From Desulfomonilaceae bacterium (GTDB lineage: Bacteria > Desulfobacterota > Desulfomonilia > Desulfomonilales > Desulfomonilaceae): DNA of 64,000 bases. The DNA lies in the NCBI GenBank assembly GCA_031082285.1, contig JAVHLK010000006.1:1-64000 (forward strand). The letters are read 5' to 3'. The notes beneath the pieces are model-generated. The model did not search any database and was not told where the DNA came from. It worked only from the letters and a program-made list of their open reading frames with translations. Positions 10,907 to 35,474 of the stretch are shown in pieces (positions within the stretch are counted from its first letter, which is position 1; every line of letters begins with the position of its first letter). Both the position numbers and the translations under genes were made by a program.

Positions 10907-11230
10907 TTACCATAGCGCATCAAAGCCCAGAGCGAACTCTATAGCTTCCCTGACCTTGCGCATCGGCTGTTGCGAAAGATGGGTGATGAATTCTCCCATT
11001 CTTGATTTCTGAACTGTTTGGATGTTGTCCAGATTAACCGCGCACTCAGTGAACATGCCGTCGGCCCGGGACAGTGGGACTTCCGTGGGAATAGCCCGGA
11101 TCGTCGTTGTGATGGGAGCCACGGTTATGGATGTGAGAAACGAAATAGCGGAATTTCGTGTGAGAACAAGGACCGGCCGCCGTTTGTCCGGTTCTTTGAA
11201 TTTGTACCAGTATACATCTCCGTGCTTCAC
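10907..11230 (-). CDS. MazF/PemK-type toxin
   Basis: A growth-inhibiting endoribonuclease family member. The protein shows the PemK/MazF layout: GDVYWYKF near the N-terminus, RRPVLVLTRN, the TSITVAPITTTIR strand and a late VNLDNIQTVQKSRM segment. GTG 11230 forms a four-base GTGA overlap with the antitoxin stop, the usual arrangement; an alternative GTG at 11242 would add four residues. Length of about 107 residues is normal. It should cleave mRNA when unopposed by the antitoxin encoded just upstream. Confidence 0.88.
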   Translation of the reverse strand: MKHGDVYWYKFKEPDKRRPVLVLTRNSAISFLTSITVAPITTTIRAIPTEVPLSRADGMFTECAVNLDNIQTVQKSRMGEFITHLSQQPMRKVREAIEFALGFDALW

Positions 11231-30984: not shown

Positions 30985-31805
30985 TTGTCTCAGATGGACG
31001 CTTGCGAGGTCTTCCGGGTTTTCCCGTGCTGAGGTCCCGACCTGTGTCACAAACGCTGCATGTCCGGCCGGGCGACCGGTCCGTGTCCTTTTTCGGAGCG
31101 AGCTCGACCGACCTTCGTCAGAGCAGAGCGGCAATCGCTCCCAATCCTTAGCAAGTCCCCGCAGGGTTCGATGTATGACAAGCGGGTCGCGGACGGTAAT
31201 CCCCAGGTGACATCGCGCACTCGACCACGGATACCCCCATGGTACATTCGTCATACTCGCCCGTACCGGATTCTGTTCCACATAGCGGTTAGAACCGCAA
31301 CCAAATGGCGATTGCCGGCATCGGCGTCACGCACGAGTGTGGGTTTCGCAAGTACCATCGTACTACGCCGGGGATCCGGACGTCGTTCCTGGTTCCCAGG
31401 CGCCCGGCGCGTACAAACCTAATTTCAGGAGCCAAGTTCCGAAAAAATCTTCGCGGGGGTGCAGCGCGTTTGCGTGGGAAATCTAACCAGCCTGGGAAAC
31501 CGGCTACAGAAAATCAGTCGGTTATGCCGCTGGTCGTCCCTTTACCATGAAAAAGCGCGGCACCCTCTTCGCTGTACTACAGGAAAACTACGTTTAGTAG
31601 TACATAGCGCGCTGCCGCCAAGAGGTGATCATCGTCCGGAACACGCGAGCTGAATCGTCCTTGGAACAGCTCACCACGGACCCCTGCAGCGAAGTTCTTC
31701 ATGCGTGTGTATCGCCGGTGAGCCCGGCCAAAGCCCTTTGCCGGAGAGTCCTCTCGGTGAGGTACCGCGACAAGGTGAACATGGTTGGTCATCAGACACC
31801 ACACA
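30985..31805 (-). pseudogene. interrupted RAYT transposase
   Basis: Read leftward, 31805-31585 encodes the middle of a RAYT transposase (VWCLMTNHVHLVAVPHRED, THRRYTRMKN-like AHRRYTRMKN, QGRFSS, LLAAARYV), ending right at the catalytic tyrosine region. About 300 bases of unrelated sequence follow (31281-31580), and then 31281-30985 resumes with MEQNPVRASMTNVPWGYPWSS and a C-terminal TGRPAG segment. The N-terminal HVTQRG part is not found upstream. I read this as one copy split by an insertion or rearrangement and missing its start. Confidence 0.8.
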
Positions 31806-31863: not shown

Positions 31864-33054
31864 CTACAATGTCTCCCGACGTTCAAGTTCCTTCGCGCTG
31901 CTCTTGAATTCGGGATCGCCAGATACCAGACCCCACAACTTGTTTGCATAAGCGTCGTTATCCAAGAAGCGGGTTCTGGCCAAACTGCTGGACAAGCTTG
32001 CTAGTAAGGTGTCTCTGCCGGGAATTGCCGCAAACTCTTCATGGGCCTCGAGTAGTCCACTGACACGATCGATAATGATTTCGTTTGTGAATACACCCGC
32101 CTCGGAAAGATGCTGCTCGACGCTCTGACAGAATGCCTGTGGGTCCGGCAGGTCCAATACGCTCTGATTCGCTAACAATGTATTCAATACCATTTGGATA
32201 ACAGATGCGTCGTTGAATGCTGGAACGCGTCTGATGGCCTCGCGAATGCTTCCAAGAATTTTGTCTCTTGGGGTTTTTCCCGGCATCTCACCAACCAGGT
32301 GACGCATCTCGTCCGGTGATTTAGGTAAACCGCACTCACTACATGGCCAGTCAGATATCACCTCGGTTGCCTCTCTAATCTTGGCATCAGGTATCCATTC
32401 GTAGGCTCTCAGTATCAAGTCTTTTATCATCCGGTCGAATTCGGCTCGCTTGACATGATCGGGTACCCAATCCTCCGTGCCGACTCGCGCATACAACCAA
32501 CCCACGTGCCATCCAAGCTTATTTGCGAATGGATCCGTGAGGCCAACAGTTCTATTTGCAGTCAAATGGTTGTAGTATTCGCCTGAATCAAGTCCAAAAC
32601 AGAAACGAAGGTACGCACACGAGTGTTCAATGATTCCGGCATCCGCATCAGAATGAAGATAGAAGTACTCTTCAACATTATTGTTCAGCAGACGCTCCAA
32701 GAACAACTTGAGGTCTCCCTTGGCACTCTGTCGACAGATCTCCGCATAGGTCTCCAGCTCGGACTGGTAGGTCGCAATCTGGCCGCTTATGACCGACCAT
32801 ATAGGAAGCACGGGGGCAACCAGGATGACGGGGGACTTACATGATTTCGACTTCCGACGTACAAGATCGCAAGACTGAGTGAGCACAATTATATGGGTGG
32901 TCTCTTGGGCGAGATCCTGTGAATATCTTTCACTCAGCAGCGTCTCTAAGGCTTTCGATTTATTTACAATATGGCCTTGACCGAGATCTACATCTCGACC
33001 ATGCTCTTGATACGTCCAATGAAGTCTAGGCGTTCCTCGACTATGCTCTGTCAT
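31864..33054 (-). CDS. unrecognised protein with TQSCDL motif (gene C of a three-gene cluster)
   Basis: The product of about 396 residues begins MTEHSRGTPRLHW; a TTG at 33075, two bases after the preceding gene, would add seven residues. Visible features are an early HIIVLTQSCDLVRRK segment, a Cys pair in DWPCSECGLPKSPDEM (possible metal site) and a helical C-terminal third with AIRRVPAFNDASVIQM and LLASLSSSLARTRFL. There is no signal peptide or membrane helix. It is the last gene of a leftward cluster with two small upstream genes. I do not recognise a family. An antiphage or stress role is only a guess from genomic setting. Confidence 0.75.
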   Translation of the reverse strand: MTEHSRGTPRLHWTYQEHGRDVDLGQGHIVNKSKALETLLSERYSQDLAQETTHIIVLTQSCDLVRRKSKSCKSPVILVAPVLPIWSVISGQIATYQSELETYAEICRQSAKGDLKLFLERLLNNNVEEYFYLHSDADAGIIEHSCAYLRFCFGLDSGEYYNHLTANRTVGLTDPFANKLGWHVGWLYARVGTEDWVPDHVKRAEFDRMIKDLILRAYEWIPDAKIREATEVISDWPCSECGLPKSPDEMRHLVGEMPGKTPRDKILGSIREAIRRVPAFNDASVIQMVLNTLLANQSVLDLPDPQAFCQSVEQHLSEAGVFTNEIIIDRVSGLLEAHEEFAAIPGRDTLLASLSSSLARTRFLDNDAYANKLWGLVSGDPEFKSSAKELERRETL

Positions 33055-33077
33055 GACAAAGTCTATGCGAAGCAAGA

Positions 33078-33410
33078 TTACTCAAATATGAACGCACAAG
33101 TGGCTTCCATTGCCCTGGTTTCTTTATGCGTCGTTTCAAGAGTCGCACGCACTTTGTTTGCGGCCAGGTTTCTTGCCTTTTGATTCTCCAAGTTCGCATT
33201 ATAAGGAATGGTAATTTGATTCTTCCTGGTAACCACTGAGAACTCAACGGCTCTGTCGTTAGTGCCGATCTTGCGCGATGTTACTGAGGCCCACGGTTTG
33301 GATTCCTCTAACTCACTAAACACTATGGTCTTAGTGCAACGCCCACTCTGGGGTTCATTTTCTTGAAGATCTGCTGTCGTGTTTTCCCTCTTCTTGGGTG
33401 TGGTAGTCAT
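33078..33410 (-). CDS. unrecognised small protein (gene B of the cluster)
   Basis: The 110-residue protein starts at ATG 33410, overlapping the gene A stop by four bases (ATGA), with GGGAG just upstream. The first 30 residues are polar and probably disordered; the rest is Lys/Asn/Thr-rich with a VVTRKNQITIPYNANLENQ stretch and an alanine-rich helix (ARNLAANKVRATLE). It could be a small adaptor, or an antitoxin-like partner of gene C. No family is recognised. Confidence 0.7.
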   Translation of the reverse strand: MTTTPKKRENTTADLQENEPQSGRCTKTIVFSELEESKPWASVTSRKIGTNDRAVEFSVVTRKNQITIPYNANLENQKARNLAANKVRATLETTHKETRAMEATCAFIFE

Positions 33411-34042
33411 AGTGTCTCCCTCATTCTTAGACCGTAGACGTTCTTCAGAAAAGCCAAACCTTCATCTCTGTACTTCAACGTTCGACCATTCAGGCGAGTC
33501 GATGCTTCCTTGGCATCGTTGACCTCATGATGGAAATTGAGATCAACATACAGTGATTCTTCCTCACTGGCGGTCAGTGTCACATTCAGTACAGCATCTT
33601 CCCATTTGATGGACCGCTTGATGGACAGACTCAATGGAATATGGCCATGCTCTGCCAGCCCCTCGGCATCGCTGAGTCGAAATAGCGAGGCTAATCCTTG
33701 GTCGAGTTCTCTGTCTCTAAAGGCAAAGTTGATTCCGAAAGCGCTCACCGGCGTGTGAGGTAATGTCTCTAGGATCCTTTCCGCCAGTGCCTCCGCGAGA
33801 CGTAGGCTCTCATCCTCAGTGGTTTTCGTAGTAATAATAAGGGAAGACGCCTCTGGCGTCACAACCAGCCGATCCGTCGAAAACTTCAACTGCACTCCTC
33901 GTGGGCTTGCCGCAAATTCTACACTCATGGATGAACCATCATGAAGCTCTTTCAGTTCTTTCGCCATCCACTGTGGGGAGAATATGGCTGTGTTCCATAG
34001 CCCTGCAAGGAAAATATTCCAATTCTCTATTACCGGAACCAC
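33407..34042 (-). CDS. unrecognised protein (gene A of the cluster)
   Basis: The 211-residue protein starts at GTG 34042 (VPVIENWNIFLAGLWNTAIF). It looks alpha/beta: the strand-like block GVQLKFSTDRLVVTPE, a helix with LAEALAERILETLPHTPVSAFGINF, and a C-terminal LYVDLNFHHEVNDAKEA. The phrase LPHTPVSAFGINF appears conserved in hypothetical proteins that I recall in other bacteria, but I cannot name the family. It opens the cluster and has the tightest coupling to gene B. Confidence 0.72.
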   Translation of the reverse strand: MVPVIENWNIFLAGLWNTAIFSPQWMAKELKELHDGSSMSVEFAASPRGVQLKFSTDRLVVTPEASSLIITTKTTEDESLRLAEALAERILETLPHTPVSAFGINFAFRDRELDQGLASLFRLSDAEGLAEHGHIPLSLSIKRSIKWEDAVLNVTLTASEEESLYVDLNFHHEVNDAKEASTRLNGRTLKYRDEGLAFLKNVYGLRMRETL

Positions 34043-34718: not shown

Positions 34719-35474
34719 TCACGCCACCAGCTTCTCTTTTCTCAGGATCTCGCCTCTCGTGCTCACGATGACCTGCTCCATAGGCACTGATCTTCCGGCC
34801 GTTTCCATGCCCCGCTTCACGATGTAAGGAAGTCCGCCGCAGCACGGCACCTCCATGACCACCACAGTGACGCTCCTGATTGAGGCGTGTGCGAAGATTC
34901 CCGCAAACTTTTCGACATAGGCCTGGGTGTCGTCGAACTTGGGACACCCGATCATGACGACCTTGCCCTCCAGGAAATCCCGGTGAAAATTGGGATAGGC
35001 GATGGGCGTGCAATCCGAAGCTACGACGAGATCCGCGTTCTTGAGAAACGGGGCGGTGGGGGGAACCAGCATGATCTGCACCGGCCAATGGGTAAGCGCC
35101 GAGGCCTGAGACGCATGAGACACGGGTTCATTTGCCGTTTGACAAGCCGTTTGCGGTGCAAAGGACTGCACCATCGCGGAGGGGCAACCGCAGGGCATCG
35201 TCTGTTCCGTGGCAACGTCGGTGTGCTTCAGTTCATCCAAACGTTCGTGGACCGCTTCCTCGTCGAAGTCCTCGGCTTCTCTCTCCTCAATGGTCAGAGC
35301 GCCTTCCGGGCACTCTCCCAGGCATGCGCCCAGTCCGTCACAATACTTATCGCCAACGAGTCTCGCCTTACCGTCCACGATCTCGAGCGCACCTTCGGCA
35401 CAGGATATGATGCACTCACCGCAGCCGGTGCACAGATCTTCATCTATCTTGATCATCTTTCGATTTACTTTCAT
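34719..35474 (-). CDS. 2[4Fe-4S] ferredoxin-domain protein of the hcp operon
   Basis: The 251-residue protein opens with two clusters: DLCTGCGECIISCAEGALEI and CDGLGACLGECPEGAL. A linker with MPCGCPSAM follows, then a C-terminal domain with ADLVVASDCTPIAYPNFH, VVMIGCPKF and EVPCCGGLPYIV. It is a likely electron carrier or maturation partner for Hcp. Its ATG overlaps the end of the HD-domain gene by four bases; together with hcp they form a leftward operon. Confidence 0.85.
   Translation of the reverse strand: MKVNRKMIKIDEDLCTGCGECIISCAEGALEIVDGKARLVGDKYCDGLGACLGECPEGALTIEEREAEDFDEEAVHERLDELKHTDVATEQTMPCGCPSAMVQSFAPQTACQTANEPVSHASQASALTHWPVQIMLVPPTAPFLKNADLVVASDCTPIAYPNFHRDFLEGKVVMIGCPKFDDTQAYVEKFAGIFAHASIRSVTVVVMEVPCCGGLPYIVKRGMETAGRSVPMEQVIVSTRGEILRKEKLVA

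What the first reader, a model, noticed from the sequence alone, without database searches (positions are those of the whole stretch)
31864..34042. Compact three-gene cluster of unrecognised proteins in mobile-element debris
Genes A (211 aa), B (110 aa) and C (about 396 aa) are coupled by an ATGA overlap and a two-base gap. The stretch appears lower in G+C than its neighbours, lies beside a broken RAYT copy, and none of the three proteins has a family I know. C has a TQSCDL motif and a C-x2-C pair. Such overlapping sets in defence-rich junk regions are often antiphage or addiction systems.
Basis: partly seen in the sequence, partly recalled or inferred. Interest (0 to 1): 0.72.

Follow-up and report, generated by a model that had tools for sequence, protein, structure and literature searches.

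The report
Modular three-gene toxin–antitoxin-like operon
Three overlapping genes form a small mobile cassette that looks like a three-part "poison and antidote" switch, part of a large and apparently undescribed family of bacterial operons in which the poison gene is swapped freely while the first gene and the linker are kept.

Summary
The three genes are real and lie on the minus strand: A 33407-34042, B 33078-33410, C 31864-33054 (or 33075). They are GC-poor (0.49 against 0.566 for the window; GC3 0.51 against 0.68). None matches Pfam, NCBIfam, PADLOC or PHROGs. Homologous A-B-C trios, about 30% identical, occur sporadically across many phyla: A sits upstream of C in 29 of 32 distinct loci, and the three exceptions carry truncated C. 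C is predicted to have the MazF/PemK toxin fold with an (S/T)xxCD motif. A is a TBP-like duplicated fold. B is short, Ser/Thr-rich and variable. Distant A homologues, and TIGR04255 proteins in the same first slot, are followed by a variable linker and then an interchangeable third gene: PemK, HEPN, PIN, HicA-like, metallo-beta-lactamase or other SxxCD proteins. Natural swaps show that the N-terminus of B follows the first gene while its C-terminus follows the third gene. Best reading: a tripartite toxin–antitoxin–stabiliser operon that works like TAC/CmdTAC but has no SecB, with C as toxin, B as bipartite antitoxin and A as its partner or sensor. Anti-phage use is plausible but untested. Toxicity of C is inferred, not shown.

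The parts
33407..34042 (-). Gene A: first component, 211 aa, predicted TBP-like duplicated beta-alpha-beta(4)-alpha fold; same operon slot as TIGR04255
   Evidence: (pLDDT 94.9)
33078..33410 (-). Gene B: middle component, 110 aa, Ser/Thr-rich variable N-terminal part plus short beta-strand and helix C-terminal part; proposed bipartite antitoxin/adaptor
31864..33054 (-). Gene C: third component, 396 aa from ATG (403 from TTG 33075); proposed toxin/effector of MazF fold
32485..33012 (-). C residues ~15-190: MazF-like barrel, the conserved core of C homologues
   Evidence: approximate limits from the alignments (31, 32) and the model (46); fold match
32866..32880 (-). TQSCD motif of C (residues 59-63); T, Q, C and D invariant in 29 homologues
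31867..32457 (-). C-terminal helical region of C, longer in this copy than in most homologues
33407..33410 (-). ATGA overlap of A stop and B start (translational coupling)
31577..31804 (-). RAYT-like transposase fragment next to C (not part of the system)
   Evidence: motifs by eye; Pfam negative

Best explanation
A-B-C is a mobile three-gene toxin-antitoxin-like operon. C is the toxin/effector: a MazF-fold protein with an (S/T)xxCD site, probably an RNase or translation poison. B is a bipartite, largely disordered antitoxin/adaptor whose C-terminal segment holds C and whose N-terminal segment binds A. A (TBP-like fold) stabilises or licenses B, as SecB-like chaperones do in TAC systems, and is the likely sensor. 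When A is titrated or displaced, for example by a phage product, B fails and C is released to arrest the cell. Shown by computation: the operon, its conservation, the fold match, the exchange of third genes, and the co-variation of the two halves of B in homologous operons. Inferred: toxicity of C, binding of B to A and C, and the phage trigger.
For: Conserved order A-B-C in unrelated genomes with different neighbours. C model: the top 23 PDB fold matches are 22 MazF-family toxins and the type III toxin CptN (TMt 0.50-0.67; best E 0.013). C is homologous to the third genes of TIGR04255 operons. The third gene is swappable: PemK, HEPN, PIN and metallo-beta-lactamase reach Pfam cut-offs, HicA is weak. 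HEPN and another third-gene family occur behind both A-type and TIGR04255 first genes. Natural swaps: L053 against L055/L056 has the first gene 82-85% and the B N-terminus 48-57% identical, while the B C-terminus is unrelated and TQDCD is replaced by PemK; L086 against L060/L062/L063 shares the B C-half but not the B N-half or first gene. TAC precedent for transferable antitoxin extensions (PMC5105189) and for phage triggering (PMC11618068).
Against: C has no detectable sequence similarity to MazF. The fold match has a modest E-value and the full model only pTM 0.68. By eye the MazF catalytic Arg/Thr pair is not kept in C. A matches no known chaperone fold; the best PDB hits have TM below 0.36. 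Homology of A to TIGR04255 is not significant by profile. Metallo-beta-lactamase third genes are not classical toxins. The swap evidence comes from relatives of the operon, not from the window copy. No experiment exists.
Confidence: 0.65

Rival explanations
1. A sensor-adaptor-effector defence system that is not an addiction module: A (or A-B) detects a phage product directly and activates C, and C is inactive without activation, so no antitoxin is involved.
For: Effectors include a metallo-beta-lactamase, not a classical TA toxin. BREX (BrxHI) adjoins L005 and type I RM genes adjoin L006, L031 and L034. A phage contig carries C next to head genes (L048).
Against: PemK, HEPN, PIN and HicA-like third genes normally need an antitoxin, and the middle gene of L037 has a weak antitoxin-like match (PHD_like, E 0.0033). 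Many copies lie outside defence islands.
Confidence: 0.22
2. A transcriptional or lysogeny-type regulatory cassette: B (an HTH protein in the plasmid relatives) and A control C or nearby genes, and C is a non-toxic nucleic-acid-binding barrel.
For: Middle proteins of the TIGR04255-SHDCD cassettes carry an HTH. A has a TBP-like fold with distant viral TBP matches.
Against: The ABC-type B has no detectable HTH. The third slot is filled by RNase toxins in homologous operons. No conserved target genes adjoin.
Confidence: 0.08
3. Chance adjacency of hypothetical ORFs in transposon debris, with no joint function.
For: Degenerate mobile-element surroundings.
Against: The same A-B-C order recurs in unrelated genomes.
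Confidence: 0.01

Closest known systems
TAC systems (SecB-like toxin-antitoxin-chaperone; CmdTAC, Mtb HigB1-HigA1-SecBTA)
   Same: Three genes; a toxin, an antitoxin with a partner-specific extension, and a third protein that pairs with diverse toxin/antitoxin families; mobile; CmdTAC is triggered by phage capsid protein.
   Different: The third protein is a TBP-like fold, not SecB. It is encoded first, the partner-specific part of B is N-terminal rather than C-terminal, and the effectors differ.
TIGR04255 ('sporadically distributed') operons: TIGR04255 - linker/HTH - SxxCD, PemK, HEPN, PIN or HicA-like gene
   Same: Same gene order, same kind of bipartite linker, homologous third genes; found on plasmids of Klebsiella, Pseudomonas, Acinetobacter, Vibrio, Meiothermus, Robbsia and Gloeocapsa.
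   Different: Window A is not a detectable TIGR04255 member by profile, and the ABC-type B is shorter and lacks a detectable HTH.
MazEF / PemIK type II toxin-antitoxin
   Same: Predicted fold of C; PemK replaces an SxxCD gene in near-identical operons.
   Different: No sequence match to PF02452, different conserved residues, extra helical domain, and an additional gene A.
RnlA (RNase LS)-RnlB and CptN (type III) toxins
   Same: A TBP-like domain is reported in some RNase LS proteins (PMC3710099); CptN is among the fold matches of C.
   Different: No sequence relation, and a different operon layout.

Membership tests
TAC (SecB-type toxin-antitoxin-chaperone) | SecB-like chaperone gene | tested here: not met
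   A matches no SecB family and no SecB is among the listed fold matches
TAC (SecB-type toxin-antitoxin-chaperone) | Toxin + antitoxin + third protein in one operon | tested here: inconclusive
   Operon met; toxin and antitoxin activities inferred only
TAC (SecB-type toxin-antitoxin-chaperone) | Antitoxin carries a transferable, partner-specific extension | tested here: inconclusive
   Natural swaps in homologous operons; not testable in the window copy itself
MazF/PemK toxins (PF02452) | Profile match | tested here: not met
MazF/PemK toxins (PF02452) | MazF/CcdB-type barrel fold | tested here: met
   top 23 PDB matches all MazF family or CptN, best E 0.013, probability 1.00 (predicted model, not a solved structure)
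MazF/PemK toxins (PF02452) | Catalytic Arg/Thr pair and mRNA cleavage | not tested
   Not conserved by eye; no assay, no structure-based residue alignment
SxxCD third genes of TIGR04255 operons | Homologous N-terminal QG...(S/T)xxCD core | tested here: met
   hhalign E 6.7e-6, probability 85; the A6 profile ranks C proteins as nearly all its next hits; the C profile finds L074 and L053 first among non-C ORFs
TIGR04255 | Profile match or profile-profile homology | tested here: not met
   (E 0.005-0.06, probability at most 7%)
TIGR04255 | First gene of a linker + toxin-type operon | tested here: met
Known anti-phage systems (PADLOC 2.0) | Model match | tested here: not met

The most novel reading that the evidence does not exclude
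A and TIGR04255 proteins define an undescribed superclass of tripartite toxin-antitoxin/abortive-infection operons. A TBP-fold licensing protein, unrelated to SecB, controls a bipartite disordered antitoxin that evolution rewires to at least seven effector families, and C is a new MazF-fold toxin clade with a Cys-Asp motif at its active site.
Probability: 0.45. Interest if true: 0.85.

Novelty: new variant of a known kind. Interest (0 to 1): 0.74.

Why it matters
TIGR04255 has been a named family without a function, and no paper in the searched library mentions it. The gene-swap logic gives it a testable role and links dozens of 'hypothetical' genes into one modular system. If the linker really binds the first protein at one end and the toxin at the other, it is a natural plug-and-play switch like chaperone addiction, built on a different fold. 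It would also bring a new set of RNase-type effectors to screens for phage defence.

Tried and rejected
Pfam, NCBIfam, PADLOC and PHROGs gave no significant hits for A, B or C. PDB sequence searches were empty or chance-level. tblastn of C against plasmids and phages found nothing. Homology of A to TIGR04255 by profile was tried with several alignments and never became significant. C against MazF by profile was negative, including after removing a contaminating long ORF from the MazF set. A shared family profile for B was not possible: only three B proteins match each other by HMM. AdoMetDC, CYTH-type and SecB folds for A were considered and rejected: the PDB matches have TM-scores below 0.4 and SecB is not among them. 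The C-x2-C pair as a zinc site was rejected because it is not conserved. A RAYT profile match was not found.

Full report
WHAT IS THERE. The finding covers three minus-strand genes: A 33407-34042 (211 aa), B 33078-33410 (110 aa, ATGA overlap with A) and C 31864-33054 (396 aa from ATG; 403 aa from TTG 33075). Their G+C is 0.49 against 0.566 for the window, and GC3 is 0.51-0.52 against 0.68-0.69 for the neighbouring Fe-S and hcp genes, so they are probably imported. The adjoining Fe-S gene (34719-35474) has a clear homologue (59-72% identity) in most genomes of the same family. A close A or C homologue was found only in G000 among the five same-family genomes of the phylum sample; G102 has a distant A homologue of another type. 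A RAYT-like fragment lies 60 bases past C by eye, but no Pfam model matches it.

CONSERVATION. No library knows the proteins. A genome-wide scan with C gave 29 loci in Planctomycetota, Nitrospira, Gammaproteobacteria, Omnitrophota, Deltaproteobacteria, Alphaproteobacteria and others, at about 30% identity. After removing duplicates there are 32 distinct loci including the window. A lies directly upstream of C in 29, and the other three hold a truncated C. A short ORF between A and C is readable in 27 of these 29. No other gene recurs as part of the unit. Neighbours differ: a BREX helicase (BrxHI) in L005, type I restriction-modification genes in L006, L031 and L034, a TIR-like gene in L007 (by eye), and housekeeping genes elsewhere. 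A viral contig (L048) carries C just upstream of genes that look like a prohead protease and a capsid protein (by eye).

STRUCTURES. A is predicted with high confidence (pLDDT 94.9) as two beta-alpha-beta(3-4)-alpha units, the topology of TBP-like folds. PDB matches are poor. One unnamed viral protein matches at E 3e-9, TM 0.61-0.64, and viral TBPs match weakly. C (pLDDT 84, pTM 0.68) has its best 23 PDB matches among MazF-family toxins and the type III toxin CptN (probability 1.00 for the best ones, TMt mostly 0.56-0.67, best E 0.013). C has no sequence similarity to MazF, so the link is at fold level only. B is Ser/Thr-rich (0.23 on average against 0.12 in A and 0.11 in C), with a C-terminal segment that looks like a beta-strand followed by a helix with a loosely recurring Asn.

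THE WIDER SYSTEM. TIGR04255 loci were examined because that family looked similar to A in size and position. They show the same three-gene layout: first gene, variable linker, swappable third gene. Third genes include SxxCD proteins (L035, L053, L070, L074, L076 and eight of eight plasmid cassettes inspected), PemK (L055, L056), HEPN (L050, L061, L067), PIN (L052, L059, L068, L072), HicA-like (L037, L038, L071, L073) and two further unknown families. Pfam confirms representatives: PemK E 2e-13 and PIN E 3e-6; HicA is weak. Most other assignments in this list rest on reading the sequences. Distant A homologues, found with the A profile, show the same: metallo-beta-lactamase (L081-L085, L087), HEPN (L090, Pfam E 1e-7), an MTQSCDL protein (L089), and in L086 a linker and third gene homologous to those of TIGR04255 loci (linker E 7e-22, third gene E 1e-12). 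The HEPN of L090 matches HEPNs of TIGR04255 loci (E 6e-8), and the L089 effector matches the L074 effector (E 8e-8). C itself is homologous to the SxxCD third genes (hhalign E 6.7e-6; hmmsearch ranking).

NATURAL DOMAIN SWAPS. L053 and L055/L056 have first genes 82-85% identical and linker N-termini 48-57% identical (z above 20), but linker C-termini with no similarity (z about 0), and their third genes are a TQDCD protein and PemK respectively. L055 and L056, both with PemK, share the linker C-terminus (83%). Conversely, L086 (A-type first gene) and L060/L062/L063 (TIGR04255 first genes) share the linker C-half (z 13-20) and, for L062 and L063, the third gene, but neither the linker N-half nor, detectably, the first gene. 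So the N-terminus of the linker goes with the first gene and its C-terminus with the effector.

MECHANISM. The simplest reading is a tripartite toxin-antitoxin operon: C toxin, B bipartite antitoxin, A partner that stabilises B or senses a trigger. In TAC systems, chaperone-dependent antitoxin extensions are transferable between unrelated antitoxins (PMC5105189). In CmdTAC a phage capsid protein pulls the chaperone away, the antitoxin is degraded and the toxin freed (PMC11618068). The present system works in the same way in outline, if the inference is right, but it is not a TAC: A is not SecB-like. It is also not a PemK family member by sequence, and A is not a TIGR04255 member by profile, although it occupies the same slot.

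LIMITS. No toxicity, binding or phage data exist. The swap evidence comes from relatives. The A-TIGR04255 relation rests on operon position and shared partners. The catalytic residues of C are unknown. Novelty was judged against the listed libraries and an open-access paper library only.

Noticed in passing
window 10937-11227 (-): A canonical PemK/MazF toxin gene (PF02452, E 1.3e-18) elsewhere in the same window.
   Followed up: no
L038 (own genome, contig C249), 1273-2944: The same genome carries a TIGR04255 - linker - HicA-like operon, a second member of the wider system.
   Followed up: partly
L048, 1-4528: Viral contig with a C gene directly upstream of a prohead-protease-like and a capsid-like gene: a phage-borne copy in the head module (gene identities by eye).
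   Followed up: partly
L005, 1847-14147: A-B-C sits next to a BREX helicase (BrxHI, PADLOC E 4e-272) and a SIR2-like gene (by eye).
   Followed up: partly
L081-L085 and L087: Distant A homologues followed by a linker with a conserved ~110-aa domain and a metallo-beta-lactamase-fold protein: another uncharacterised trio.
   Followed up: partly
L054, L057, L058, L069: TIGR04255 operons whose third gene is an unknown ~140-aa family with a YNCI.WAA motif; possible new effector.
   Followed up: no
L040 (Klebsiella plasmid pVA126-339), 2573-4837: TIGR04255 - HTH - SHDCD cassette, also on plasmids of Pseudomonas, Acinetobacter and Vibrio.
   Followed up: partly
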